From Hyphomonadaceae bacterium ML37 (GTDB taxonomy: Bacteria > Pseudomonadota > Alphaproteobacteria > Caulobacterales > Maricaulaceae), in contig CP091241.1 of the NCBI GenBank assembly GCA_027627685.1, positions 1,737,191 to 1,801,190 on the forward strand: DNA of 64,000 bases. Direction: 5' to 3'. A program made the translations under genes and the position numbers. The notes beneath the pieces were generated by a model. The model did not search any database and had not been told where the DNA came from. It saw only the letters and a list, made by a program, of their open reading frames with translations. Numbering within the stretch: position 1 is the stretch's first letter; every line of letters starts with the position of its first letter. This document shows, one piece after another, positions 1 through 12,853 of this stretch.

Positions 1-409
1 GGACCGCTATCTGCACACGCCCATGCGCTATCCGTGCAATTACGGCTTCACGCCTCACACCCTGTCCCTGGATGGCGATCCCATCGACGTGATGGTGCTG
101 GGCCAGACCGAGCTGGTTCCGGGCTGCGTCATGCGCGCCCGGCCTATCGGCGTGCTGGTCATGGAGGACGAGAGCGGTCAGGACGAGAAGATCCTCGCCG
201 TGCCCCACTCCAAGCTGACCCCTCTGTATGAAGAGATGAAAACCTATACAGACGTGCACCAGGCCCAGATCGCGCGCATCACTCACTTCTTCGAGCACTA
301 CAAGGATCTCGAACCGCGCAAATGGGTGAAGGTCCAGGGCTGGTACGGCGTGGAGCGCGCACGCGAGATGATCCTGGACTCCATCGAACGGGCCAAGACC
401 GCAGATTGA
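1..409 (+). CDS. ppa: Inorganic pyrophosphatase, 5' end outside the window
   Basis: Family I soluble inorganic pyrophosphatase, a cytoplasmic enzyme that hydrolyses the pyrophosphate released by biosynthesis. The frame is open from base 2, so the N-terminus lies upstream of the window and about 135 C-terminal residues are visible. They open with DRYLHTPMRYPCNYGF, a typical family I core, followed by the acidic metal-binding cluster DGDPIDVMV (DxDxxD). The protein ends in the usual helical tail (HYKDLEPRKWVKVQGWYG). The internal ATG at base 23 is not the true start, because the conserved block runs upstream of it. The stop is TGA at 407-409. The next gene begins about 100 bases downstream on the same strand, with no clear terminator between them. 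Confidence 0.95.
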   Translation, partial: DRYLHTPMRYPCNYGFTPHTLSLDGDPIDVMVLGQTELVPGCVMRARPIGVLVMEDESGQDEKILAVPHSKLTPLYEEMKTYTDVHQAQIARITHFFEHYKDLEPRKWVKVQGWYGVERAREMILDSIERAKTAD

Positions 410-506
410 GCAGGTCTGCCGGGGGCGGTGCTGAAACCCGCCCTCGCCTCGCTGGCGTCTGCGTGGTGTGATCACACCCGTGACAAGCGACGCGAGGAGA
501 CGGTTG

Positions 507-1355
507 ATGAAGCGTATGATCGAGACGCCTGTGGACACCCTGCCGGGCGATCCGCTGGAGGCCTATTTCAATCCCGATTTTATGAACTCGCCCACGGCGC
601 GGCCGCTGCGCATTCTGGCTGAATATCTTCAGCCCAAGGAGCGCTTCGAACAGCGCGAGATCAACGACACCATCCTGTTCTTCGGATCAGCGCGCATCCT
701 GCCCGCCGATGTGGCGCAGGCGCGCCTGGACGCGGCGCAGGCTGACGGCGGCGAGGAGGCGGTGAAGCTGGCCCAGCGCGCCGTGAGGATGTCGCGCTAT
801 TACGAAGACGCGCGCGAGCTGGCCAAACGGCTGACCCACTGGTCGCTCAATCTCGAGCCGTGCGGCGGGCGGCGCTTTGTCGTGTGCACCGGCGCCGGGC
901 CCGGCATCATGGAAGCGGCCAATCGCGGCGCCATGGAGGCGGGCGGCGAGACCGTGGGCCTGGGCATCACCCTGCCCATGGAGGAAGCCAATAACCCGTA
1001 TGTGACGCCGGACCTCAATTTCGAATTCCACTACTTCTTCACGCGCAAATTCTGGTTCCTCTATCCCGCCAAGGCGCTGGTGCTCATGCCCGGCGGGTTC
1101 GGCACGCTGGACGAATTGTTTGAGACGCTGACCCTCCTGCAGACGAAAAAGATGAAAAAGCGCCTGCCCGTGGTGCTGTTCGGGACGGAATACTGGGACA
1201 AGGTGCTCAATCTGGAGGCTCTGGTGGAGTTCGGCGCCATCAACGCCGCCGACCTCGACCTCATCCACCGCACCGACAGCGTGGACGACGCCTACACCTA
1301 CATCGTCGACGAGCTGTGCGAATACGCCCTGCCCAACCCGGGACCGGGGATGTGA
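507..1355 (+). CDS. LOG family nucleotide-binding protein (lysine-decarboxylase-like fold)
   Basis: Rossmann-fold protein of the LOG (TIGR00730-like) family. Short members release free bases from nucleoside monophosphates; the exact substrate of this longer type is not known to me. The family phosphate-binding signature PGGFGTLDE is present, as is the glycine-rich block CTGAGPGIMEAANRGA that precedes it. I place the start at ATG 507, which has GAGGAGA (494-500) six bases upstream. An in-frame GTG at 468 would add 13 residues but lacks a ribosome site. The protein would be 282 residues, longer than plant-type LOG proteins (about 200) because of an N-terminal helical extension, as seen in many bacterial homologues. 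Nothing in the neighbourhood suggests a pathway. Confidence 0.85.
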   Translation: MKRMIETPVDTLPGDPLEAYFNPDFMNSPTARPLRILAEYLQPKERFEQREINDTILFFGSARILPADVAQARLDAAQADGGEEAVKLAQRAVRMSRYYEDARELAKRLTHWSLNLEPCGGRRFVVCTGAGPGIMEAANRGAMEAGGETVGLGITLPMEEANNPYVTPDLNFEFHYFFTRKFWFLYPAKALVLMPGGFGTLDELFETLTLLQTKKMKKRLPVVLFGTEYWDKVLNLEALVEFGAINAADLDLIHRTDSVDDAYTYIVDELCEYALPNPGPGM

Positions 1356-1450
1356 GTTCTGTCCCCGGGGGCGTTCGCCTCAAGCCAGATTCTGATTGCG
1401 ATCCGGCCACTCTGCCCTGATGGTGATGCTCACCATGCGGGGGCGGGGCC

Positions 1451-2173
1451 ATGATCCTTCAGAATCTCTCCAGAGCGATCCGTGAACAGAATTACTACGC
1501 GGTGGCGCTGGAGTTCGTCATCGTCATCGCCGGCGTGGTGATCGGCTTTCAGATTCAGGCCTGGAACGAGGGCCGGTCGGACCGGGCGGATGAAAGCCGG
1601 TACCTTTTGCAGGTCGGTGCGGACCTCGCCCATGATTTGAGCCGGGTGGACCATTTTCTGGAGCTCTACGCCTCGCAGACCGCAGCGGCGCGGCGGGTGA
1701 TCGGCTATCACGAGACACAGGGCGGCGTGGATCTGGCCGCCTATTACGGCGACGTGATCGCGGTCTTGTATTTTGAGGAGCATGTCCCGCGGTACGGATC
1801 GCTCGACGCGCTTCTGGGCTCGGGCGACGTGGCCCTTCTCAGAGACCAGCGGATCATCACCCAGCTGCTTGAAATCAGTCTGCGTTATGAGGAGATCGCC
1901 AAGCTCCAGGCGCATAAGTATGACGATGTGCGCGAGTTCCTCTACGCCACCTATGGCGACACCCTGGACTAAGCCGCCGGGATCGACGCCTGGCTGGGTA
2001 ATCCGCCCCCGGTGCTGGCGCCGGAGGTGGTCGATCTGTCACGCGGCGATATGCGGATCAGGAACGGCCTCACCGTGGTGATCTTCAACAATAATCTGCT
2101 GATCGAGAAACTGCAGGCGATCCGCGCGATGATCGTCGAGGCGCAGGGGATCGTCGCAGAGGGGCGGTCATGA
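1451..2173 (+). pseudogene. DUF6090-like membrane protein, paralogue 1, interrupted by an in-frame TAA
   Basis: First member of a tandem family of membrane-anchored proteins running to base 7271. Residues 1-38 are the conserved anchor: a basic N-terminus (SRAIREQN), one hydrophobic helix (about 17-36) and QAWN. The second family block, LLGSGDVALLRDQRI, is also present. An ochre codon at 1970-1972 stops translation after 173 residues, yet the same frame stays open for 66 more codons to TGA at 2171-2173. That gives 240 codons, the normal size for its paralogues (241-259 residues), and the downstream part (LTVVIFNNNLLIEKL) looks like a genuine C-terminal helix. One substitution from CAA or GAA would create the stop, so this is a recent nonsense allele, a sequence error or a truncated protein. 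No function is known for the family. Confidence 0.75.
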
Positions 2174-2228
2174 GCGAGGCCGCACCAGTCCACAAATCAT
2201 GGATCACGCCTGAACCCGGAGAGGGCCG

Positions 2229-2777
2229 ATGACCCTTGAATCGATCTATTATATCGGCCAGACGATCGCTGTTTTCGCCATTCTGTTCTCGCTGATCGCC
2301 CTCTGGGTCCAGCGCCGGCAGACCTACAGCGTGGAGAAATCAAACGCGCAGCGCCAGTTGCTGGACGGCTGCCGGGCCTTCTTCTGGAGCCTGAGCCATG
2401 ACCGGGCGCTGTTTGAGGACGTTCGCTTCTGTCTTCACCGATACGGCGAGGCGGATGATTTTCAAAAACAGCGCTTTTCAGGCTGGGCGTTCGACATCCT
2501 GATGATGACCGAGCAGGTCTTCTATCAGCACCGCGAAAACCTCATCAATGAAGCGCAATTCAACGGCTTCACCACCGGCATGATCATGGTGATCAACACG
2601 CCCGGCGGCCGGGTGTGGTGGGACGAAGCCCGGCAGCTGATCAGCGCGGACTTCTCGAAATTTCTCCACGAACGATACGAGCGCGACGGGGCAAGCGTGC
2701 CCCGCTGGGACGAGATTCAATCCCACCTGCGGCTCCCGTCCGGGCATGACACAGGAATTGAAGGGGCCGCGCCATGA
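2229..2777 (+). CDS. Single-pass membrane protein of unknown function inside the DUF6090-like array
   Basis: A 182-residue protein not related to its neighbours. It has one N-terminal transmembrane helix (about residues 7-27, YIGQTIAVFAILFSLIALWV) followed by Arg/Gln-rich sequence (QRRQTYSVEK), suggesting the rest is cytoplasmic. The soluble part is predicted helical and rich in Trp and Phe, with a conserved-looking block NTPGGRVWWDEARQ. I recognise the general pattern of hypothetical proteins common in marine proteobacteria but no characterised family. GGAGAGG (2219-2225) lies just upstream of ATG 2229. Its stop overlaps the next start in an ATGA tetranucleotide (2774-2777), so it is translationally coupled to paralogue 2 and belongs to the same transcript. 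Its predicted topology is opposite to that of the paralogues. Confidence 0.8.
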   Translation: MTLESIYYIGQTIAVFAILFSLIALWVQRRQTYSVEKSNAQRQLLDGCRAFFWSLSHDRALFEDVRFCLHRYGEADDFQKQRFSGWAFDILMMTEQVFYQHRENLINEAQFNGFTTGMIMVINTPGGRVWWDEARQLISADFSKFLHERYERDGASVPRWDEIQSHLRLPSGHDTGIEGAAP

Positions 2778-3499
2778 TTCTTCGCCGCCTTTCCAAACAT
2801 GTGAAGGATCAGAACTGGTTCGCCGTGGCGCTGGATTTTCTGATTGTCGTGCTCGGTGTGTTCGCCGGTCTGCAAGTATCGAACTGGAATGAAGCGCGTC
2901 AGGATCGCAACCAGGCCGCCGCCTTGCTGGAACGTCTTGAGAGCGATTTCCGGGAAACACGCGCGCTCGCGATCGAACAGAATCGTGGATACTATAGCAA
3001 TACGGTCAAGCTCAATGAATTGTTAAATCGCATTGAAGACGAGCAAGACGCGATCTCTGATGCAGAAGCGGGCCGGTTGTTGAACGACGCAATGTTCTTT
3101 CGTTTGCCTCAGGCGACGCCGATCAGCTTTCAGGAAATGCTCTCCGCCGGACGGTTGGAGCTTTTGCGTGATGCGCAACTCAGAGTGACGCTGCGCGAGT
3201 ACGCCGACACGTCGAGGACCATTGTGAATGCCGCCGACCTTATCGCAACAGACTATGTGGTTATTGTTCGCGAACTGACCCCCTATTTCACCACCATCCG
3301 GTCACCAAATGAAAGCAGCTCACAGGCTGTTTCCGACATTGGCGCGCTGAATGTGGCGGCGCTGCGCGAGGACCCTCAGGCGCGTGCGCTCGTAACCCAG
3401 ATGTTCTTGGGACATGCCAATATGCAATCGCTGACCGAAGGTCAGATTGCATCAATCGACGATGTCCTCGAGGCTCTCCAAGCGTCTGGGGGACGTTGA
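2774..3499 (+). CDS. DUF6090-like membrane protein, paralogue 2
   Basis: A 241-residue member of the tandem family. The N-terminal anchor (MILRRLSKHVKDQNWF, then a helix near 17-36 ending in QVSNWN) is recognisable but more diverged than in paralogues 4-7. The second family block is FQEMLSAGRLELLRDAQLR. The region between is helical and charged, with no cysteine. By the positive-inside rule the N-terminus is cytoplasmic and the large helical domain lies in the periplasm. The start overlaps the upstream stop (ATGA, 2774-2777), and AAGGGG lies about eight bases upstream. The stop overlaps the next start as TGATG at 3497-3501. Base composition in the middle of this gene is a little lower in GC than in its neighbours. 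The role is unknown. Confidence 0.8.
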   Translation: MILRRLSKHVKDQNWFAVALDFLIVVLGVFAGLQVSNWNEARQDRNQAAALLERLESDFRETRALAIEQNRGYYSNTVKLNELLNRIEDEQDAISDAEAGRLLNDAMFFRLPQATPISFQEMLSAGRLELLRDAQLRVTLREYADTSRTIVNAADLIATDYVVIVRELTPYFTTIRSPNESSSQAVSDIGALNVAALREDPQARALVTQMFLGHANMQSLTEGQIASIDDVLEALQASGGR

Positions 3500-4236
3500 T
3501 GATCCTGCGCCGCCTCGCCACCGCCTTCCGCAAGCAGGACTGGTTCACCGTCGCGGTGGAAACGCTAATCGTGGTGTTTGGAGTGTTTATCGGTCTGCAA
3601 GTCGCCAACTGGAATTCGGCGCGTATCGATCGCGAGTTGGAGCGGGCTTATCTTTTGCGCTTGCATGAGGAAGTCTCGGTCACGATGGCGCAGCAGGAGA
3701 GCGAGCGCGCTGACGTGATGGCGAGATCAAGACGACTGGAAGAGGTTTCAGTCTATTTTGAAGCCTTTGGCACGCCGCAGGCCCTTGCCATGGAGCCCGT
3801 TGGCGATCACTGCGCAGCCGTTGTCGCCTCGCATATCTTTAGCGGAGACGTCTCGCTTCCTCCGACGATCAGTGAGCTGATTTCGACAGGCCGCATCCTG
3901 CTCGTCTCTGATGAGGCGCTGCGGATGCAGATCGTCCGGTTTTCCCAGACCATCGAGGAGTATGGGCAGCTGCGCCATGACATCCAGGTCGACCGGCTGG
4001 TTCTCGCCCGCAAGTATCCTCAGTTCATTCGGTTGGCTCGCGGAGGGTGGACAGAAAGCACCTGCGACTTTCCGGCGATGGCGCAATCTGCGGCCTTTGT
4101 GAACGACTTTCTGGACAATTCACCCCGCTTTTACGCCTACGCGGCGGAAGCCATTCAGGGCCGGCATGACTTGCACCAGCAGATGAAAACGGCGCTTGAA
4201 GAAGAACTGGGTCTGACAACTGGGGCTGCGCCATGA
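3499..4236 (+). CDS. DUF6090-like membrane protein, paralogue 3
   Basis: A 245-residue member of the family. The start is ATG 3499 and not the TTG one codon earlier, because all paralogues begin M-I-L and the TGATG overlap with the previous stop fits coupled translation. The anchor reads MILRRLATAFRKQDWF with a membrane helix at about 17-36, ending QVANWNSAR. The second block is ISELISTGRILLVSDEALR (about 124-142). Two cysteines, near residues 105 and 189, lie in the predicted periplasmic domain and could form a disulfide. The middle of the protein shares little obvious sequence with the other copies. The stop overlaps the next ATG (4233-4236). Confidence 0.8.
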   Translation: MILRRLATAFRKQDWFTVAVETLIVVFGVFIGLQVANWNSARIDRELERAYLLRLHEEVSVTMAQQESERADVMARSRRLEEVSVYFEAFGTPQALAMEPVGDHCAAVVASHIFSGDVSLPPTISELISTGRILLVSDEALRMQIVRFSQTIEEYGQLRHDIQVDRLVLARKYPQFIRLARGGWTESTCDFPAMAQSAAFVNDFLDNSPRFYAYAAEAIQGRHDLHQQMKTALEEELGLTTGAAP

Positions 4237-4997
4237 TCCTCGACAATCTCACGCGCGCCTTCAAAACCCAGAACTGGCTCGCCGTGGCGACCGAGTTCGT
4301 CATTGTCATCGCCGGCGTGGTGATCGGGTTTCAGATCAATGCGTGGGCTGAAGGGCGCAGTGATCGCGCGGCCGAGCAGGCCATTCTTTTGCAGCTGCAT
4401 GACGACTTCGCCGAATTGCGCGCGACCGAGGAGGCCTATCTCGCCCGCGCCGCGCAGCAACAGCGCCTGTCGGCGCTCTGGATCAGCGCGCTTGAGGGTC
4501 CTGAACCGCCCGGCATGGCGGGGCTGCGTCAGATCGTGCTGGACTTTTATGAGGCCGAGGATCCCGAACGCCGGGCCGTGCTCGAGCGCGGCCCGCTCCA
4601 CAATATCTTCACCGATCCCATTGGCGGGGAAAGACAGCCCGCCGCGTCGGTCGTTTTTCAGCAATTGGTGGCGAGCGGTGATCTGCGGCTGCTTCGCTCA
4701 CAGCGCCTGCGCGCCGCGCTCACGCGCCGCGAACTGCAGCGGGAGCAGTCGGTTACAGCGCTCGATCGCAACAGGACCGCCAGTGGATTTCCCATGGCTG
4801 AAGTGTTTCTTGAACCCGTCTTCCAGGCAGGCTCGCCCGATCCGGTCGCGACTCTCAACGCCGCCATGGCCCGGCCCGAGTTCGCCGCCGGGCTGAGAAC
4901 CTTCGTCGGCGTGAAGACCTATAACGAACAATGGTATCGTTTTACCTACGAGGAGACCCTGGCGGTCCTGGCCGTTCTTGAAGAGGAGTCGCCGTGA
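4233..4997 (+). CDS. DUF6090-like membrane protein, paralogue 4
   Basis: A 254-residue member of the family. The anchor is MILDNLTRAFKTQNWLAVAT, continuing into a helix with FVIVIAGVVIGFQINAW that is nearly identical to paralogues 1 and 5-7. The second block is FQQLVASGDLRLLRSQRLR. The segment between them is longer than in the siblings and contains an extra stretch around ERGPLHNIFTDPIGGERQP. There are no cysteines. The start overlaps the previous stop (ATGA) and the stop overlaps the next start (TGATG, 4995-4999). The intervening domain is predicted to be helical and periplasmic. The family has no known biochemical activity. Confidence 0.8.
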   Translation: MILDNLTRAFKTQNWLAVATEFVIVIAGVVIGFQINAWAEGRSDRAAEQAILLQLHDDFAELRATEEAYLARAAQQQRLSALWISALEGPEPPGMAGLRQIVLDFYEAEDPERRAVLERGPLHNIFTDPIGGERQPAASVVFQQLVASGDLRLLRSQRLRAALTRRELQREQSVTALDRNRTASGFPMAEVFLEPVFQAGSPDPVATLNAAMARPEFAAGLRTFVGVKTYNEQWYRFTYEETLAVLAVLEEESP

Positions 4998-5110
4998 TGA
5001 TCCTCACCCGCCTCTCCCACGCCATCCGCACCCAGAACTGGTTCGCCGTGGTGCTGGAATTCGTCATCGTCATCGCCGGTGTAGTGATCGGTTTTCAGGT
5101 GACGGCGTGG
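4997..5110 (+). repeat. Recurring 114-bp 5' gene module (copies at 1451, 4233, 4997, 5767, 6492)
   Basis: The first 38 codons of each DUF6090-like gene form a direct DNA repeat that recurs roughly every 750 bases. Copies at 4997-5110, 5767-5880 and 6492-6605 are nearly identical. Those at 4233-4346 and 1451-1564 are close, and those at 2774 and 3499 are diverged. Identity drops sharply after codon 38, at the end of the membrane anchor. The coordinates given are those of one representative copy. Confidence 0.75.
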
Positions 5111-5770
5111 AGCGCAAGACAGGCCGACCTGCAGCGCGGGCAGCTCTATCTCGACCGGCTCGCGGCCGACCTTGAGGAAAATCTCATCCGCACCCGAAAC
5201 GATATTCAGTTTCGAACCGATGTGCGCAATCTCGGCCTTGACGCTGCCGCGTTCGCAGCCGGCGAGCAGATTCCGGACTCCGCCTGGCACGTCGTGGTGA
5301 GCTATTTCAACGCCAGCCAGTCGGGGAGTTCCTACCCCGTGCACGCGACATTCGACGAGCTGATTTTCAATGGCGATCTGGGTCTGATCCGCGACATCAC
5401 GCTGCGCAGCCAGCTAACCAGCTATTACACGACGGGAAACATCGCGCAGATCACCGACGCCCAGCCGGCTTTTCGCGAACAGGTCCGAATGATCATCCCG
5501 ACCTGGATGCAGGACCATATCTGGGTGCATTGCTACCGCTCCGGGGACCAGGATGGTGGACAAACGGTCGTTGAGTGTTCCGCCCCGCCAACGCGACAGG
5601 AAGACATCGCGGAAATCGCCGATGCGCTTCTGGCCAATGACTCGTTGACCGGGCATCTGCGTTTCTGGCTGTCCACCCAATACGCAGCCCTGACCATCCA
5701 CGTTGATAACGAAAGACGCGTTCTGGCGCTTCTGGAGGACGTCCTTGCGGCTCGGGAAAGCGCACCATGA
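4997..5770 (+). CDS. DUF6090-like membrane protein, paralogue 5
   Basis: A 257-residue member of the family. ATG 4997 is preferred over the GTG at 4994 because it matches the family start M-I-L and overlaps the previous stop. GAGGAG lies eight bases upstream. The first 38 codons are almost identical in DNA to those of paralogues 6 and 7. The second block, FDELIFNGDLGLIRDITLR, lies at about residues 119-137. Cysteines at about 179 and 194 (WVHCYRSGDQ and VVECSAPP) may pair in the periplasm; paralogue 7 also has one at 179. The stop overlaps the next start (5767-5770, ATGA). Confidence 0.8.
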   Translation: MILTRLSHAIRTQNWFAVVLEFVIVIAGVVIGFQVTAWSARQADLQRGQLYLDRLAADLEENLIRTRNDIQFRTDVRNLGLDAAAFAAGEQIPDSAWHVVVSYFNASQSGSSYPVHATFDELIFNGDLGLIRDITLRSQLTSYYTTGNIAQITDAQPAFREQVRMIIPTWMQDHIWVHCYRSGDQDGGQTVVECSAPPTRQEDIAEIADALLANDSLTGHLRFWLSTQYAALTIHVDNERRVLALLEDVLAARESAP

Positions 5771-6495
5771 TCCTCGCCCGCCTCACCCGCGCCATCTGCC
5801 AGCAGAACTGGTTCGCCGTGGCGCTCGAATTCGTCATCGTCATCGCCGGTGTAGTGATCGGTTTTCAGGTCACGGCGTGGAATGCGGAGCGTCAGGATCA
5901 TGCGCGCGAAGGGCTCATCCTTTGCCGGCTGGCGAGAGATTTTGACCAGATCGAAGCCGACGTGCGCCAGCACCTGGCCGATGCGCAGACCTCTCAGGCC
6001 GCGGCCGAGGCGATCGTCGCGGCGGCACAGGCCGGTCTGACGCCCGAAATACTCGACGGGCTGGATATCGACCGGGCGCTGGCCCTGCGTGTGGCCCCGG
6101 CCGGCTCGCCAACATACGCCCAACTCGTTTCCAGCGGCGACATGGCGCTGATCCGCTCAGAGGCCGTGCGCGAGGCGCTGATCGCTTATCACGAGCAGCT
6201 GTCGCGATTTCAGCGTTCCGGCGATTCACTCGCGACGATCCTTTACGGATCGGGAGCCCGGGTGTTCGACATAAGAGGGCTGACGTCCCAAAGCATAGCC
6301 GCCTTGCCCGAGACGATTCAGGCCGACGTACTCAACCGGCTCGCCGATCCGGACGTTTATACGGCTGCGCGCGGAGTGGCCTACGCGAACATGGTTAATT
6401 TCGACTGGAAGACGACCCTCGTCGAGGACGTGGCGTGGGTGAATACCGAGCTGGCGGCCTATGGCGCCGGCTGTGCCAACGAGGCCGCCCCATGA
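5767..6495 (+). CDS. DUF6090-like membrane protein, paralogue 6
   Basis: A 242-residue member of the family. Its anchor, MILARLTRAICQQNWFAVAL with a helix ending QVTAWNAER, shares long identical DNA stretches with paralogue 5 (for example across 5821-5868). The second block is YAQLVSSGDMALIRSEAVR. The domain after the anchor is alanine- and glutamine-rich (about 55-100) and probably forms a long helix. Cysteines are at position 11, just after the membrane helix and near the C-terminus (GAGCANEAAP), a pattern different from paralogues 3, 5 and 7. The stop overlaps the next start (6492-6495, ATGA). Confidence 0.8.
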   Translation: MILARLTRAICQQNWFAVALEFVIVIAGVVIGFQVTAWNAERQDHAREGLILCRLARDFDQIEADVRQHLADAQTSQAAAEAIVAAAQAGLTPEILDGLDIDRALALRVAPAGSPTYAQLVSSGDMALIRSEAVREALIAYHEQLSRFQRSGDSLATILYGSGARVFDIRGLTSQSIAALPETIQADVLNRLADPDVYTAARGVAYANMVNFDWKTTLVEDVAWVNTELAAYGAGCANEAAP

Positions 6496-7271
6496 TCCTC
6501 GCCCGTCTCACCCGCGCCATCCGCGCGCAGAACTGGTTCGCCGTGGCGCTGGAATTCATCATCGTCATTGCAGGCGTGGTGATCGGTTTTCAGGTCACGG
6601 CATGGAATTCCGATCGCGAAGCGTCTGCGCGCGCTGAGATTCTGACCAGCCAGTTGATCGCGGATTTGCGCGGCGAGCAATGGCGGGTGGACGGCGTCAG
6701 CATTTACTATTCGCAGGTGGCCGACAACGCCCAGCGAGCCATTGATGCGCTGGAAGGCCGCAGGGATGTGGATGATGAAACGCTGGTGATCGAAGCCTTC
6801 CGCGCGACCCAGATTTTCAGCTTTCCGGTCATTCGCGCCACCTATGAAGAAATGGTGGCGACCGGAACCATTGATCTGATTTCCGATGAAGCGCTGATGA
6901 CCGCCGCCGTGGAATATTATGAAACCGGGCAGGACGAAATGAGCTTCCTGGACCGCGAGCGGGCCTACCGGCGGGCCTTTTTCCGCCTCTCCGACCGCGC
7001 GCTCTATGAAGCCCTGGTCGCCAACTGTGCCGAGCCGCTGACGCTGACCATCGGGGATTATGCCGCCTTGCCGGACATTCTCGACTTTGCGTGCGAGATC
7101 GACGGCCAGGACAGCGCAATTGCGCAGATGGCGCAGCGCCTGCGCGCCAGCGAAGACTTGCTGCCCCTGTTGCGCCAGCGCGCGGTCGAGACCTCACTCG
7201 AGAGCCAGAGTCAAACCTACTGGCGCCAGATGTTCGAGCGCATCCTCCCGCCCACGCAGACTCCGCAGTGA
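6492..7271 (+). CDS. DUF6090-like membrane protein, paralogue 7 (last of the array)
   Basis: A 259-residue member of the family. ATG 6492 is chosen because it gives the family N-terminus MILARLTRAIRAQNWF and overlaps the previous stop. An in-frame start at 6435 would sit inside paralogue 6 and add 19 residues that no sibling has. GAGG lies about seven bases upstream. The second block is YEEMVATGTIDLISDEALM at about 118-136. Cysteines are at about 179 and 201. The gene ends in PPTQTPQ and is followed by 119 bases to the opposing tRNA-Glu, where I see no convincing terminator. Like its siblings it is predicted to have one cytoplasm-to-periplasm membrane helix and a helical outer domain. Confidence 0.8.
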   Translation: MILARLTRAIRAQNWFAVALEFIIVIAGVVIGFQVTAWNSDREASARAEILTSQLIADLRGEQWRVDGVSIYYSQVADNAQRAIDALEGRRDVDDETLVIEAFRATQIFSFPVIRATYEEMVATGTIDLISDEALMTAAVEYYETGQDEMSFLDRERAYRRAFFRLSDRALYEALVANCAEPLTLTIGDYAALPDILDFACEIDGQDSAIAQMAQRLRASEDLLPLLRQRAVETSLESQSQTYWRQMFERILPPTQTPQ

Positions 7272-7390
7272 TCGTGGCTCGCCCCGGCCGCGCCTTTTGC
7301 GATCACAACAGGTGCAACCCAGTCGCACAGGCCGCCGCAAGCGGGACCGCTGCGGCTACAATCAGATCAAATTGCGATGGAAACCGCGCG

Positions 7391-7465
7391 TGGCAGGCCC
7401 TAGGGGAATCGAACCCCTCTTTCCAGGTTGAAAACCTGGCGTCCTAACCGATAGACGAAGGGCCC
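7391..7465 (-). tRNA. tRNA-Glu (anticodon UUC)
   Basis: Read on the minus strand, the sequence folds as a 75-base cloverleaf with CCA encoded. The acceptor GGGCCCT pairs with AGGGCCT (first pair G-U), the D stem is GTCT/GGAC, the anticodon stem is CCAGG/CCTGG with loop TTTTCAA (TTC at positions 34-36), and the T arm is AGGGG-TTCGATT-CCCCT. It lies between the end of the membrane-protein array and recJ. Confidence 0.95.
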
Positions 7466-7553
7466 GCGAACGCGTGGAGCGTCGATATATCCGCCCCCTC
7501 CCCCTTATGCAAGCGCCGCGCGGGGAGTTTCTTCACATCGCGCTGCGCACCGG

Positions 7554-9331
7554 TCAGCCTGCGGGGGCAAGGTCTTCCAGATGCAGCTCGGCGCGCCGGC
7601 CATAGCGGTTGTCTTCGGCGCGCAGCTTGCCCGCCACGTGGAAGCGCGCCTCGCCCGGCGCCAGCACGGCCTGGCCCATCGGACCTTCTGCGGCGCGGAA
7701 CGCAATGCCCTGCAGACGCGCGCCGCCAGCAGCCTCGAAGGTCACGCGCACATGGTTGGTCCCCACCAGCTTGGCGAAGGTGCGGCGCAGGTCGGCGAAG
7801 GCGAAGCGCGGCTCCGGATTGCCCTGGCCGAAGGGCGCGGCGGCGCTCAGCGCCTCGCAAAACTCGAACGATACCGAGGCCGGATGGGCCACGGCGTCCA
7901 GCTGCAGCGTGCGCGCCTCGTGCGCGGCGGCCCATTCGCCGGCGAGCTCGGTTTCCATGAAGGCGCGCAGATCATCGATCCTGTCCGCGGCCATGGTCAG
8001 GCCGCCGGCCATGGCGTGGCCGCCGCCTGCCACCAGCAGTCCAGCCTCACGGGCGCGCGCGATCGCTGCGCCCAGATTGACGCCGGTGCAGGAGCGGCCA
8101 GACCCCTTGGCCAGGCCCGTTTCGGGATCAATGCCAATGACGATGGAGGGACGGTTGAAGCGGTCCTTCATCCGGCCTGCGGCGATGCCGATGACGCCGG
8201 GATGCCAGTGCTCCCCGGCGGCGATCAGGATGGGCGCGCTTTCGCTCACCCCCGCCGCCTCGATCTGGGCCAGCGCGCCGTCCAGCACTCCCGCCTCGAT
8301 CTCGCGGCGCTCGCCATTGAGGCGGTCGAGCTCCTGGGCGATGGCGCGGGTTTCCTGCGCGTCGTCGCTGATCAACAGGCGCGCGCCCAGATCCGACTTG
8401 CCCACCCGGCCCCCGGCATTGATTCGCGGCCCGATGAGGAAGCCCGCGTGATATACGCCCGCCGGTCCGGTCACGCCCGCCACCTCGGCCAGCGCCTTGA
8501 GGCCGGGGCGCGCCCAGGCGCTCATGACTTTGAGGCCCTGGGCCGTGACGGCGCGGTTAAAACCGGTCAGCGGCACCACGTCGCAAATCGTACCCAGAGC
8601 CGCCAGATCGGCGAAGGCCAGCAGGTCCGGCTCGGCTTTGCCCGCAAACGCGCCGCGCTTGCGCCCCTCGCGGTTCAGCGCCGCCAGCAGCACGAACACC
8701 ACGCCCGCCGCCGCCAGATGGCCGCAGCCGGACTGGTCGCCGGGCTGGTTGGGGTTCACAAGGGCGTCGGCGTCGGGCGCGGCGCCGTCCATCAGATGGT
8801 GGTCGATCACCGCCACCGGCAGGCCCATGGCCCGCGCGCCGGCCAGCGGAACCACGGCGGCCGCCCCGCAATCGAGCGTGATGACCAGACCGGCGCCCTG
8901 ATTTTTAAGCGTCTCGAACGCGGCGGTGCTGGGGCCATAGCCCTCTTCAATCCGGTCGGGAACATAGATCAGGGGCGGCTCGCTCACCGCCGACAGCCAG
9001 CGCGAGAGCTGGGCCGCCGACGTGGCGCCGTCCACATCGTAATCGGCAAACAGGGCGATGCGCACGCCCGCCTCCACCGCGTCCCAGATCAGGCGCGCAG
9101 CCGTGTCCATGCCCTTGAAGCTCGACGGGTCAGGGAAGCTGTCGCGCAGGCGCGGCGCGAGGAAGCCCGGCGCTGTGTCCGCCGTCAGGCCGCGCGCCGC
9201 CAGCAGGCGGGCCAGCGCGTCATTGGCGCCGGTCAGGCGCGCAATCTCGCCCGCCACGCGGTCGTCGGCGGGCTTGAGCGCCCAGGCGCGCCCGCCCAGC
9301 GAGCGCGTGACGCCGAACAGCGCGCCCGCGC

Positions 9332-9335
<4 letters not shown>
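7554..9335 (-). CDS. recJ: Single-stranded-DNA-specific exonuclease RecJ
   Basis: 5'-3' exonuclease acting on single-stranded DNA in recombination and mismatch repair. The DHH superfamily motifs are in order: ADYDVDGATSA, LDCGAAAVVPL, VIDHHLMDG and ALGTICDVVP. They are followed by NAGGRVGKSDLGARLL and the DHHA1 block VAGGGHAMAGGL. A C-terminal OB-like region (NHVRVTFEAAGG) follows. I start it at GTG 9335, which overlaps the glpX stop as GTGA and gives 593 residues starting VSAGALFGVTRSLGGR, a typical alphaproteobacterial RecJ N-terminus. The open frame extends upstream inside glpX, but that sequence is not RecJ-like. The coupling to glpX suggests one transcript. Confidence 0.95.
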
Positions 9336-10291
<956 letters not shown>

Positions 10292-10342
10292 GCTTGTTTC
10301 CTTGCTCATACAGGGGGCGTCAGCGCACACCGCTGGCGCCGG

Positions 10343-10657
10343 TCATTCAGGCGGCGTTCCTAGCGCGCGCTGGCGCGCGGCGTAGTCTTCGGCGGGCTCT
10401 TGCGGATCCGGCACGCTGGCGGCGGCATCGCGCACCTGCGCGCCACGCAGCAACAGCGCACGCTCCGCAGCCGCCATGGAGGCGAGCGTGCTGCGCTCCA
10501 GCACGCGCTCGGGCACATAGACGGGAGGCGTTCCGGCCTCGTCGCCGGACAGGCGCGCCAGGGTCCAGCTTTCCGACGCTGGCTGCGGCATGTCGAGGCG
10601 CACGCAACCCGAAAGGGCGGCGGCGGCGAGCGAGACGGCGAGAATTCGCAAAATCAT
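10343..10657 (-). CDS. Small lipoprotein of unknown function
   Basis: A 104-residue protein with a classic lipoprotein signal: MILRILAVSLAAAALSGC, lipobox LSGC with cysteine at residue 18. The mature part (about 87 residues) is hydrophilic and alanine- and glutamate-rich, with no domain I recognise. Start ATG 10657 has AAGG upstream. The open frame continues further upstream, but that part overlaps the divergent PHA synthase gene and is low-complexity, so it is not coding. It lies 51 bases upstream of glpX on the same strand and could share its transcript. The tail (PQEPAEDYAARQRALGTPPE) is rich in charged residues. Confidence 0.75.
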   Translation of the reverse strand: MILRILAVSLAAAALSGCVRLDMPQPASESWTLARLSGDEAGTPPVYVPERVLERSTLASMAAAERALLLRGAQVRDAAASVPDPQEPAEDYAARQRALGTPPE

Positions 10658-10750
10658 GACGCGCCTTGCGCCTCCCGGGCATTGGATGGGGCTTCGGCTT
10701 TCTATACGCTTCTGCGCATCACTGTCACCTCCCGGGAGGCGTTGCGCGCC

Positions 10751-12853
10751 ATGGCCGACAAGAAAACCCCCGCCCGCTCGGGCAAAGCCGCCCGCAGCGC
10801 GTCCGCGAAAACCCCGCAAAAGCCTGCGGCCAAGCCCGCAGCGGGGTCCGGAACGAAGCCCAAAGCGGCCGGCAAACCAGCGCCAACGCAAGGCGCAGCC
10901 CGGGCGGCCAAAGCCAAATCAGCCTTGAAAGCAGCGTCGAAGCCGAAGGCCAAAGCGGCGCCGCGCACAGCCCAAGCCCCCGGTCCCGCTGAATCGGCCC
11001 CGACCTCGCCCGCGCCGCAGCCTGCAACCGATCCGGCGGTGCAGGCGGCAGCCTCTCTCGGCCTTCTGGGCGAAGCGGATCTGGAGCGGCTGGAGACGGT
11101 GTCGCGCAATCTCATGCAGTCGGCGCTCAAGAGCCAGAAGCTGATGAGCGACGTCATGCGCCGGTCCCTCGAAGGCGATCCGTCGCTGGCGCCCAATGCC
11201 GACCCGCTGCACGCCGCGCCGGAACTGATCAAGGCCTGGGAATCGATCCTGTCCGATCCCGAATTGGTGTTGCAGGCCCAGTCCGACCTCTACCGCAGCT
11301 ATCTGGACCTGTGGTCGTCCACCAACCGGCGCATGCTGTCGGGCGAGGCGGCGGACCCCGCCATCATGCCGGAACCCGGCGACAAGCGCTGGCGCTCCAA
11401 GGCGTGGAGCGAGCATCCGGTGTTCGACGCCATCAAGCAGTCCTACCTCATCAATCAGCGCTTCATGCTGAACCTTTTGGCGGGCGCCAAAGGGCTGGAC
11501 GAGCCTGCGCGGCGCAAAGTGAATTTCGTCACCCGCCAGATGATCGACGCCATGGCGCCGACCAATTTCGCCATGACCAATCCGGACGTGATCGAGGAGA
11601 CGGTGCGCACCCGCGGCGAAAACCTCACCCGCGGCCTCAGCCAGATGATGAGCGATCTGGAGCGCGGCAACGGGCGCCTCGCCCTGTCGCAGACCGATAT
11701 GGACGGGTTTGAGGTGGGCAAGGATCTGGCGGCGACTCCGGGCGCGGTGGTCTGGCGCAATGAGGTGATGGAGCTGATCCAGTATGCGCCCGCCACAGAC
11801 ACGGTGCGCCAGCGCCCCCTCCTCATCGCGCCGCCCTGGATCAATAAATTCTACATTCTCGACATGCGCCCCAAGGGATCGATGATCCGCTGGCTCACAG
11901 AACAAGGTTTCACGGTTTTTCTGATCAGCTGGGTCAATCCGGAAGCGGATATGAAGGACGCCAGCTTCGAGGACTATATCCGCAAGGGCCTGTTCACCGC
12001 ACTGGAGGTGATCGAGACCATCACCGGCGAGCGTCAGGTGGACACGGTGGGCTATTGCATTGGCGGCACGATGCTCGGCACGGCGCTGGCGCTGATGGCG
12101 GCCGAGGGCGATGACCGCATTGCGTCAGCGACCTTCTTCGCCGCCCAGCTCGATTTCAAGCTTGCGGGCGAGCTTCTGGTCTTCATCGATCAGGAATGGT
12201 TCAGGGAGATCGAACGCCTGATGGACGCCCAGGGCGGCGTGCTGGACGGGCGCACCATGGCCGACACGTTCAACATGCTGCGCTCCAACGATCTGGTGTG
12301 GTCGTTTGTGATCAACAACTATCTGCTGGGCCGCCAGCCCCAGGCCTTCGACCTCCTCTACTGGAACGCCGACCAGACGCGCATGCCCAAGCGGCTGCAC
12401 CTGTATTATCTCGACACCTTCTACCGCCAGAACCGTCTTTCCGAAGGCAAATTGGAGATGGCGGGCCATACGCTGAACCTCAGGAACGTGACCATTCCGG
12501 TGTTCATGCAGGCAAGCAAGGAAGACCACATCGCCCCCGCCGACAGCGTCTACCGCTCGGCGCGCCTGTTTGGCGGTCCGGTGCAGTACATGATGGCGGG
12601 GTCGGGCCATATCGCCGGCGTGGTCAACCATCCCGACGCCAACAAATACCAGCACTGGGTCAACGAGGCCCTGCCGGAAACCCGCGAAGCGTGGCTCGCC
12701 GGCGCATCCGAAACCCCCGGCTCCTGGTGGCCGCATTGGAAAGCGTGGCTGCTGTCCATGAACGATGCCCAGGTCCCGGCCCGCGAGCCCGGCGGCGGGA
12801 AGGTGGAGCCGATCTGCCCCGCGCCGGGGGAGTATGTGAAGGTGAGGAGTTAG
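10751..12853 (+). CDS. phaC: Class I poly(3-hydroxyalkanoate) synthase with a basic Lys/Ala/Pro tail
   Basis: Polymerises hydroxyacyl-CoA into PHA storage granules. The alpha/beta-hydrolase core has the PHA-synthase lipase-like box GYCIGGT with catalytic Cys at about residue 436, the acid-bearing SKEDHIAP (Asp about 592) and the histidine in GSGHIAG (about 620). The PhaC N-domain block QSYLINQRF is also present. ATG 10751 starts MADKKTPARSG, with GGGAGG 11 bases upstream, giving 700 residues against about 560-600 for typical class I enzymes. The extra length is a low-complexity tail (about residues 1-98) with some 15 lysines in AKP/KAA-like units, resembling histone H1 and the PhaF granule protein. 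No phaA, phaB or phasin gene is adjacent. Confidence 0.93.
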   Translation: MADKKTPARSGKAARSASAKTPQKPAAKPAAGSGTKPKAAGKPAPTQGAARAAKAKSALKAASKPKAKAAPRTAQAPGPAESAPTSPAPQPATDPAVQAAASLGLLGEADLERLETVSRNLMQSALKSQKLMSDVMRRSLEGDPSLAPNADPLHAAPELIKAWESILSDPELVLQAQSDLYRSYLDLWSSTNRRMLSGEAADPAIMPEPGDKRWRSKAWSEHPVFDAIKQSYLINQRFMLNLLAGAKGLDEPARRKVNFVTRQMIDAMAPTNFAMTNPDVIEETVRTRGENLTRGLSQMMSDLERGNGRLALSQTDMDGFEVGKDLAATPGAVVWRNEVMELIQYAPATDTVRQRPLLIAPPWINKFYILDMRPKGSMIRWLTEQGFTVFLISWVNPEADMKDASFEDYIRKGLFTALEVIETITGERQVDTVGYCIGGTMLGTALALMAAEGDDRIASATFFAAQLDFKLAGELLVFIDQEWFREIERLMDAQGGVLDGRTMADTFNMLRSNDLVWSFVINNYLLGRQPQAFDLLYWNADQTRMPKRLHLYYLDTFYRQNRLSEGKLEMAGHTLNLRNVTIPVFMQASKEDHIAPADSVYRSARLFGGPVQYMMAGSGHIAGVVNHPDANKYQHWVNEALPETREAWLAGASETPGSWWPHWKAWLLSMNDAQVPAREPGGGKVEPICPAPGEYVKVRS

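What the first reader, a model, noticed from the sequence alone, without database searches (positions are those of the whole stretch)
1451..7271. Tandem array of seven DUF6090-like membrane proteins in one translationally coupled run
Seven paralogues lie head to tail. From base 2229 onward every junction is an ATGA or TGATG overlap, so at least six paralogues and an unrelated small membrane protein must be made from one mRNA. Each paralogue has a single N-in membrane helix and a helical domain of about 200 residues predicted to be periplasmic. DUF6090 proteins are uncharacterised as far as I know. A seven-copy expansion whose outer domains have diverged suggests a diversified set of binding or sensing subunits, possibly a hetero-oligomer in the envelope. 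This is the best candidate for an undescribed system in the window.
Basis: partly seen in the sequence, partly recalled or inferred. Interest (0 to 1): 0.85.

Follow-up and report, generated by a model that had tools for sequence, protein, structure and literature searches.

The report
Shuffled arrays of membrane-anchored periplasmic proteins
This marine bacterium carries a row of look-alike genes for small inner-membrane proteins that share one anchor but differ in their outer part, and related bacteria hold the same kinds of gene in different numbers and orders, as if single genes were being swapped like cards, perhaps to keep a changing set of protective or recognition proteins.

Summary
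The array is real: seven paralogues at 1451-7271, and all six junctions from base 2229 on are ATGA or TGATG. Corrections: copy 1 carries an in-frame TAA (1970-1972), while its orthologue (tail 92% identical) in a relative is intact; only copies 1 and 2 touch Pfam DUF6090, both below cut-off. It is not a local seven-copy expansion. Each protein has a constant 38-codon head (N-in membrane helix) and a variable, predicted periplasmic helical-bundle tail whose cysteines come in pairs. Tails belong to a shared pool: all 32 multi-member types span several genomes, and array mates are no more alike than random members. In Maricaulaceae 75 of 137 genomes have members, up to 23 in one array. Of 15 gene pairs with tails 88-99% identical between genomes, 14 have a different upstream neighbour, and heads are swapped on near-identical tails (tail dS 0.03, head dS 0.99). 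So mostly single genes are shuffled, with boundaries in the shared head. In a close relative the whole block is absent between conserved flanks. Best-supported function (inferred): an exchangeable repertoire of membrane-anchored protection proteins that works like TipC/EsaG/TsaI immunity strings; no cognate toxin was found. A sensor repertoire is the main rival.

The parts
1354..7386 (.). Variable block that holds the array; absent from the close relative G012, which has a different 320-aa gene here
   Evidence: blastn to L106: window 1-1353 at 92.3% and 7387-10923 at 86.8%, no match between
1451..2173 (+). Copy 1 (tail type T26), interrupted by TAA at 1970-1972; frame open on both sides
   Evidence: intact orthologue L066:10001-10723
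2229..2777 (+). Small one-helix membrane protein, not a paralogue; probably N-out (Arg-rich after the helix, by inspection). Its orthologue lies beside the copy-1 orthologue in L066; weak relatives border some other arrays
2774..3499 (+). Copy 2; no Cys in tail; ATGA overlap with 2229-2777
3499..4236 (+). Copy 3; tail Cys 105 and 189; TGATG junction; AlphaFold2 model pLDDT 92.4
4233..4997 (+). Copy 4 (type T20; tail 77% identical to L056:4710-5477); no Cys in tail; ATGA junction
4997..5770 (+). Copy 5 (type T9; tail 53% to G036); tail Cys 179 and 194; TGATG junction
5767..6495 (+). Copy 6 (type T31; tail 39% to G036); tail Cys 53 and 236 (a third, Cys 11, is in the head); ATGA junction
6492..7271 (+). 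Copy 7 (type T3; tail 77-78% to RI_462 and G036); tail Cys 179 and 201; AlphaFold2 model pLDDT 92.2; ATGA junction
6492..6605 (+). Example of the constant head (38 codons): short helix 2-12, then membrane helix from residue 15 with E21, G28, G32, Q34, W38
507..1355 (+). Left flank: LOG/lysine-decarboxylase-like gene, found in 6 of 15 genomes of the genus
7391..7465 (-). Right flank: tRNA-Glu(TTC); conservation with G012 starts at 7387, beside its 3' end

Best explanation
The array is one local hand drawn from a shared repertoire of membrane-anchored periplasmic proteins. SHOWN by sequence comparison: every gene is a constant 38-codon head joined to one of many tail types; arrays hold up to 23 genes, mostly linked by 4-nt overlaps; tail types are shared between genomes in different combinations and nearly random order; single genes have changed neighbours, and heads have been exchanged on conserved tails; tails of one type evolve under purifying selection in the six pairs measured. 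INFERRED from predicted structures and sequence rules: the head puts one helix across the inner membrane and the tail is a disulphide-stabilised helical bundle in the periplasm. INFERRED mechanism of change: RecA-type homologous recombination between heads, the only DNA that the copies share, inserts, deletes and relocates units that run from one head to the next, which keeps reading frames and overlaps and carries along any head-less gene that sits in between. INFERRED function: each tail recognises and neutralises a different antagonist that acts in the periplasm or at the inner membrane (toxin, bacteriocin or phage protein), the head being the common anchor and perhaps an oligomerisation or partner-binding helix. 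That is, it works like strings of orphan immunity genes (TipC, TsaI, EsaG).
For: All 32 tail types with two or more members span >=2 genomes (182 members after removal of duplicates; 51 are singletons). Of 15 same-type pairs from different genomes with >=85% tail nucleotide identity, 14 have an upstream gene of another type or no family at all (upstream 90 nt 19-36% identical in all 15); the downstream gene is a member in both for 9 pairs and of a different type in 9 of 9, and in 4 pairs it is the same non-member gene, as the head-to-head unit predicts. Head swaps on conserved tails: T13 tail dS 0.028/head dS 0.994 (p 1.4e-16), T18 0.110/0.696 (3.6e-11), T26 = window copy 1 0.195/0.933 (6.4e-8), out of 286 pairs tested. 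At one chromosomal site with related flanks four genomes have 3, at least 13, about 15 and 23 copies. Tail Cys counts 0/1/2/>2 = 67/5/108/2 of 182. Tail dN/dS 0.14-0.33 in six pairs: purifying selection within a type plus presence/absence between strains, as in protective repertoires. Published parallel: recombining immunity strings EsaG and TipC; TipC is membrane-bound and faces outward; TsaI has a conserved first 75 residues and a variable rest (PMC9484751; abstract, passages and section 18 read).
Against: No toxin-like or defence-system family recurs among 77 neighbouring genes, no PADLOC hit in copies 2-7 or the small membrane protein, no T6SS sheath gene in 30 of 30 genomes searched, so no cognate antagonist is known. 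Synonymous identity of similar heads is hardly higher within arrays (0.630) than between arrays (0.594), and hardly higher for same-type than other-type heads (0.570 against 0.559), so the donors of swapped heads cannot be named and codon-level constraint on the head may contribute. One of the 15 close pairs keeps the same upstream type (T21 before T2), and shared types are in the same order somewhat more often (109) than in opposite order (71). No relative on plasmids, phages or viral contigs (copy 7 alone asked of plasmids, copy 4 alone of phages), so no vehicle is seen. dS is near or above 0.9 in four of the six dN/dS pairs, so those ratios are rough. TsaI, the closest in layout, showed little recombination in the cited paper. 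The recurring TPR neighbours fit a sensory role as well.
Confidence: 0.4

Rival explanations
1. Modular receptor repertoire: the tails are ligand-binding bundles (like the ectodomain of four-helix-bundle chemoreceptors, but without second helix or cytoplasmic output), and the constant head docks all of them onto a common signalling partner in the membrane.
For: Head conserved across unrelated tails with an acidic residue in the helix (E21 in 160 and D in 19 of 182) and small residues at 28 and 32; VIA-align Z 5-7 to chemoreceptor and NarQ sensor domains; TPR/FlgO-type membrane proteins sit in or near arrays in 8 loci of 7 genomes, and 18 of their 32 matches in 20 genomes (14 with a match; the query's own place counted) lie within 15 kb of a listed member.
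Against: Z values of this size are common for helical bundles, and de novo designs rank higher; Foldseek finds nothing at E<=0.001; the window's own genome has only one weak TPR match, about 884 kb away; no cytoplasmic output domain in the models.
Confidence: 0.25
2. Phage-facing variant of the protection idea: the proteins block phage DNA entry or lysis at the inner membrane (superinfection exclusion).
For: Predicted inner-membrane anchored periplasmic proteins with patchy presence/absence, in a variable block at a tRNA gene.
Against: No match for copy 4 in phage records or for the alignment A2 in viral contigs, no PADLOC match, no phage family among those shared by two or more of 77 neighbours.
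Confidence: 0.15
3. Birth-and-death of a redundant envelope protein family with no repertoire function; shuffling is a by-product of repeated heads.
For: Repeated homologous heads would recombine anyway; copy number varies widely; one window copy is interrupted and some members elsewhere carry stops (for example one in G036).
Against: Tails kept under purifying selection (dN/dS 0.14-0.33 in six pairs); arrays are almost non-redundant in type; types conserved across genera.
Confidence: 0.15

Closest known systems
T7SS immunity-gene strings of Firmicutes: EsaG, TipC, TsaI (PMC9484751; abstract, passages, section 18 read)
   Same: Strings of non-identical paralogues, variable number between strains, conserved block(s) plus variable region, recombination through the blocks (EsaG, TipC); TipC is membrane-bound and outward-facing; TsaI has a conserved 5' block with two membrane helices and a variable rest.
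   Different: No toxin gene recognised at the locus, Gram-negative host, 4-nt overlaps, one 5' block only, tails about 20% identical to each other and shared across genera, whole genes relocated. For TsaI the paper found little evidence of recombination. No sequence relationship was tested.
Pfam DUF6090 (PF19578)
   Same: Copies 1 and 2 and 11 of 85 relatives show a weak match.
   Different: Window copies are below the cut-off or do not match; no paper in the library names it.
Staphylococcus aureus lpl tandem lipoprotein cluster (PMC4470592; search listing only)
   Same: Tandem paralogous envelope proteins in a variable genomic island.
   Different: Lipoprotein-like proteins with described host-cell effects; no relationship tested.
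Integron gene cassette arrays (recalled)
   Same: Single genes exchanged and reordered in an array.
   Different: Here the boundary is homologous coding DNA (the head); no recombinase family is among those shared by two or more of 77 neighbours. I ran no dedicated search for an integrase or attachment sites.

Membership tests
DUF6090 (PF19578) | Score above Pfam's gathering cut-off (23.5 bits) | tested here: not met
   Copy 1 21.0 bits, copy 2 15.4, copies 3-7 none; own-genome search 0 over the cut-off; 11 of 85 members of A4 match at E<=0.01, best 3e-6
DUF6090 (PF19578) | Known function or structure | not testable with these tools
   No paper found; PDB sequence search gave nothing better than E 0.15
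Recombining immunity-gene string (EsaG/TipC type) | String of non-identical paralogues with strain-variable number | tested here: met
Recombining immunity-gene string (EsaG/TipC type) | Recombination between paralogues through shared homology blocks | tested here: met
   Head swaps and changed neighbours; no dedicated recombination program such as RDP was run
Recombining immunity-gene string (EsaG/TipC type) | Cognate toxin encoded at the locus in some strains | tested here: inconclusive
   No toxin family recurs among 77 neighbours (the 25 commonest of 110 families are shown); unrecognised toxins are possible
Recombining immunity-gene string (EsaG/TipC type) | Neutralises a toxin | not testable with these tools
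   needs experiment
Four-helix-bundle chemoreceptor ectodomain | Fold match | tested here: inconclusive
   Z 5.3-6.8, rmsd 3.7-5.1 over 122-153 residues for chemoreceptor and NarQ rows, below the level that means kinship for helical bundles
Four-helix-bundle chemoreceptor ectodomain | Second membrane helix and cytoplasmic signalling domain | tested here: not met
   The final helix ends 8 residues before the C terminus in both models (251 of 259, 237 of 245) and no further domain follows

The most novel reading that the evidence does not exclude
A previously undescribed, integrase-free cassette system of Maricaulaceae: a constant membrane-helix head doubles as recombination arm, so that whole genes for interchangeable periplasmic recognition domains are traded singly within and between genomes, giving each strain its own co-expressed repertoire (up to 23 found in one array), a bacterial analogue of a swappable receptor or immunity library.
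Probability: 0.45. Interest if true: 0.85.

Novelty: new variant of a known kind. Interest (0 to 1): 0.7.

Why it matters
It turns an uncharacterised 'DUF-like' row of genes into a testable system: a repertoire whose members are exchanged mostly one gene at a time through a shared 114-base head. If protective, it would point to unknown antagonism among marine prosthecate bacteria; if sensory, to a combinatorial receptor set built around one membrane helix. Either way it is a natural experiment in recombination shuffling of expressed genes in a Gram-negative operon.

Tried and rejected
Gene conversion of heads within each array as the main process: rejected as a general claim because synonymous identity of similar heads is 0.630 within and 0.594 between arrays, although my first look at the window alone (0.61 in heads against 0.37 in tails) suggested it; codon preference at given head positions is unusual family-wide (for example GGT at G28 and G32, 0.59 and 0.60 against 0.15 in tails). 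The 5' head of the next gene looked more alike beside conserved tails (0.86 over bases 1-30 against 0.63 in random pairs, 8 pairs), but the background was not matched by genome, so I do not build on it.

Local tandem duplication as origin: rejected for most members (6 of 136 best tail matches in the same genome); a recent local duplicate does exist in G056 (L051:3929-4702 and 5472-6245, tail dS 0.073).

Phage, plasmid or defence-island origin: no support; the PADLOC scan of neighbours gave 16 models with one member each, the strongest to Mads models (4e-31). T6SS self-immunity: VipB absent from 30 of 30 genomes, control E. coli found. Fold kinship: Foldseek against PDB and viral models gave nothing at E<=0.001; VIA-align rows are generic helical bundles and absence of a family there proves nothing. 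PDB sequence search: nothing better than E 0.15. The association of the small membrane protein with arrays (7 of 9 matches within 1 kb) is partly circular, since 6 of those 7 were rows of the query alignment; of the three others one is near.

Own errors found on checking: one search gave zero shared neighbour pairs between H. indicum and RI_462 because I had relabelled a second T2; one search repeats it and finds one (T21-T2). For the same reason 'all 15' changed upstream neighbours became 14 of 15. One search counted 34 multi-member types among 200 tails with duplicates from the overlapping loci L059 and L062; one search gives 32 after removal.

Limits: gene calls are from my own script with motif rescue, so starts may be off; scoring stopped at 20 candidates per genome; the 286 pairs are not independent, and head classes there are simple patterns of mine. 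Head dS exceeds tail dS in 19 of 36 close pairs (tail dS below 0.9) and 23 of 250 others.

Papers: searches listed nothing on this array or on DUF6090; only open-licence PubMed Central is held.
Full report
1. The observation. Copy 1 is not whole: a TAA at 1970-1972 interrupts a frame that stays open to 2173, the length of its sisters. In Oceanicaulis sp. HLUCCA04 the orthologue (L066:10001-10723) is intact, and its downstream neighbour is the orthologue of the small membrane protein 2229-2777, 91% identical. Codons after the stop have not decayed faster than those before it (dN 0.050 and 0.062), so the interruption is recent or an assembly error. Pfam DUF6090 is only a remote relative: copy 1 scores 21.0 and copy 2 15.4 bits against a cut-off of 23.5, the others do not match.

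2. Place in the genome. In G012, a close relative, the flanks are conserved (window 1-1353 at 92.3%, 7387-10923 at 86.8%) and the block between the LOG-family gene and tRNA-Glu holds a different 320-aa gene (weak DUF4886 match). G012 has no member of the family. In the other relatives read, the two flanks lie on different contigs or could not be joined, so the empty site rests on one genome. Array genes have G+C of 0.55-0.65 against 0.67 for window 12-64 kb. I did not search for an integrase; the flanking genes named are none. I call it a variable block at a tRNA gene, not a proven mobile element.

3. Anatomy. Each protein has a head of 38 residues that is conserved across types (Q13 in 179, E or D21 in 179, G28 in 176, Q34 in 166, W38 in 150 of 182) and a tail of about 200 residues that is 15-28% identical between the window's copies. 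The N side carries more net positive charge in 175 of 182, so the tail should face the periplasm. Cysteines agree: the tail has none in 67, one in 5, two in 108 and more in 2 of 182 members; with one vote per type, 32, 3, 48 and 1 (four Cys) of 84. The pairs lie at several distinct places (mainly about 90/200, 100/192, 179/195-201, 229/240, and 53-75/236-246), which suggests independent disulphides on a common scaffold. AlphaFold2 gives confident models for copy 7 (pLDDT 92.2) and copy 3 (92.4): a short helix 2-12, one long helix from residue 15 to 87-88 that would cross the membrane and continue outward, and further helices (plus a hairpin in copy 3). A motif near residue 121 (roughly E-L-x-x-x-G-x-x-x-L-I-x-D) is found in 86 of 182 tails against 1.3 in shuffled tails. 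No solved structure is a convincing relative.

4. Distribution. With a 30-row profile, 75 of 137 genomes of the family have members, with 1 to 20 scored copies (scoring stopped at 20 candidates); 6 of 240 genomes of the class sample and 7 of 299 of the phylum sample, the window's own counted in each. In the window's genus 9 of 15 genomes have 1 to 8 members and 6 have none. Hyphobacterium indicum (G020) has 25 matches, 23 of them in one array. In 50 loci of named genomes, 84 of 94 adjacent same-strand pairs overlap by exactly 4 nt; of the 10 exceptions 7 are in contigs labelled Rhodothermia, Rhodothermaceae, Rubricoccaceae, Rubrivirga or Bacteroidetes. My start choice counts some TGATG junctions as 1-nt overlaps.

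5. Not a local expansion. After removal of duplicates, 182 members fall into 32 tail types with two or more members, all of which span at least two genomes, plus 51 singletons and one type left with a single member (before removal: 34 types, 33 spanning). In the window, copy 1 is type T26, copy 4 T20 (77% to RI_462), copy 5 T9, copy 6 T31, copy 7 T3 (77-78% to RI_462 and G036); copies 2 and 3 have no close partner. Of 136 members from genomes with four or more copies, the best tail match is in the same genome for 6, about as expected if drawn at random. Arrays contain the types in different order (109 type pairs in the same order, 71 in the opposite).

6. Single genes move. Fifteen pairs of same-type genes from different genomes have tails at least 85% identical (88-99%). 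The upstream 90 nt are 19-36% identical in all 15, and the upstream gene is of another type or not a member in 14; in one pair it is the same type (T21 before T2 in RI_462 and H. indicum). The downstream gene is a member in both genomes for 9 pairs, always of a different type; in 4 pairs it is the same non-member gene (the 213-aa membrane protein, the small membrane protein, a DUF3500 protein, or the flanking glycosyltransferase) and in 2 a member faces a non-member. That head-less genes stay behind their tail is what exchange from head to head predicts. Four genomes share one chromosomal site, with glycosyltransferase-side flanks 77-91% identical; it holds 23 (H. indicum), about 15 (G036, one with a TAG), at least 13 (RI_462, cut by the fetched piece) and 3 (CG15, one short) members. 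Among the three larger arrays, which share 8, 9 and 6 types, shared neighbour pairs number 0, 1 and 0; random order gives 0.24, 0.38 and 0.15. Between H. indicum and G036, six of the ten longer DNA matches inside the array are single-gene blocks (761-912 nt, 91-95% identical) in changed order.

7. Heads are swapped. In distant same-type pairs the head is better conserved than the tail (head dS larger in only 23 of 250), but in close pairs this often reverses (19 of 36): T13 in G036 and H. indicum has tail dS 0.028 and head dS 0.994 (p 1.4e-16), T18 0.110 and 0.696 (3.6e-11), and window copy 1 against L066 0.195 and 0.933 (6.4e-8); these survive correction for 286 pairs. Other close pairs (for example T8, T24, T5) kept their heads. 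Mismatches in the swapped pairs crowd into the first 60-123 bases. By a simple pattern, 12 of 32 types carry more than one head class. The simplest reading is homologous recombination between heads, the only DNA that all copies share. Against a purely array-internal process stands the small difference in synonymous identity of heads within (0.630) and between arrays (0.594). Donors of swapped heads were not identified: the nearest other heads are 84-93% identical.

8. Partners. TPR/FlgO-type membrane proteins lie in or near arrays in 8 loci of 7 genomes, a DUF3500 protein in 5 genomes, a 213-aa membrane protein in 5 (Pfam; 'FlgO-type' is recalled). Of 32 TPR matches in 14 of 20 genomes 18 are within 15 kb of a listed member, the query's own place included. 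They are not obligatory: the window's genome has only a weak match, about 884 kb away.

9. Function. Purifying selection inside types (tail dN/dS 0.14-0.33 in six pairs, some with dS near 1), near non-redundancy within arrays, presence/absence differences between strains, a constant anchor and a variable outer domain are what a protective repertoire would look like. The nearest published parallel is the recombining immunity-gene strings of Firmicutes; TipC is membrane-bound and faces outward, and TsaI keeps its first 75 residues constant, though it showed little recombination (PMC9484751). But no toxin family or defence system recurs among 77 neighbours (77 of 96 deduplicated same-strand neighbours were scanned), copies 2-7 do not match PADLOC, and the carriers have no T6SS sheath gene (0 of 30 genomes). 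I therefore hold the protective reading at 0.4, a receptor repertoire at 0.25, phage exclusion and functionless birth-and-death at 0.15 each.

10. Verdict. I file it as a new variant of the known kind 'recombining tandem paralogue repertoire', in an uncharacterised family, with function unproven.

Noticed in passing
L106 4084-5046 (G012): A 320-aa gene (weak DUF4886 match, below cut-off) occupies the site between LOG gene and tRNA-Glu where the window has its array.
   Followed up: partly
L039 8391-13923, L041, L042 6450-8285, L060 4056-7726: TPR membrane proteins with the N-terminal motif RRRNVFRVAAAYLVVGW (or a variant) are embedded in or lie beside the arrays, in places in tandem with 4-nt overlaps among themselves.
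   Followed up: partly
heads of all members, e.g. window 6492-6605: Position-specific codon preference in the head (AAC at N14 0.96, GGT at G28/G32 about 0.6, GTG at V30 0.83) differs from the tails' usage and is seen across genera.
   Followed up: no
tails of 182 members: Cysteines come in pairs at about five alternative positions, as if disulphides arose independently.
   Followed up: partly
L046 3669-4454 (G000:C1:1059668): A solitary, divergent eighth member elsewhere in the same genome; one with a similar start is in G001 (L032).
   Followed up: no
L075, L078, L080, L086, L092, L102: Contigs labelled Rhodothermales, Rubrivirga, Rubricoccaceae or Bacteroidetes encode relatives (36-39% identity over about 135-165 N-terminal residues), mostly not overlapping one another.
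   Followed up: no
L051 3929-4702 and 5472-6245 (G056): Two nearly identical members (tail dS 0.073): a rare recent duplication.
   Followed up: no
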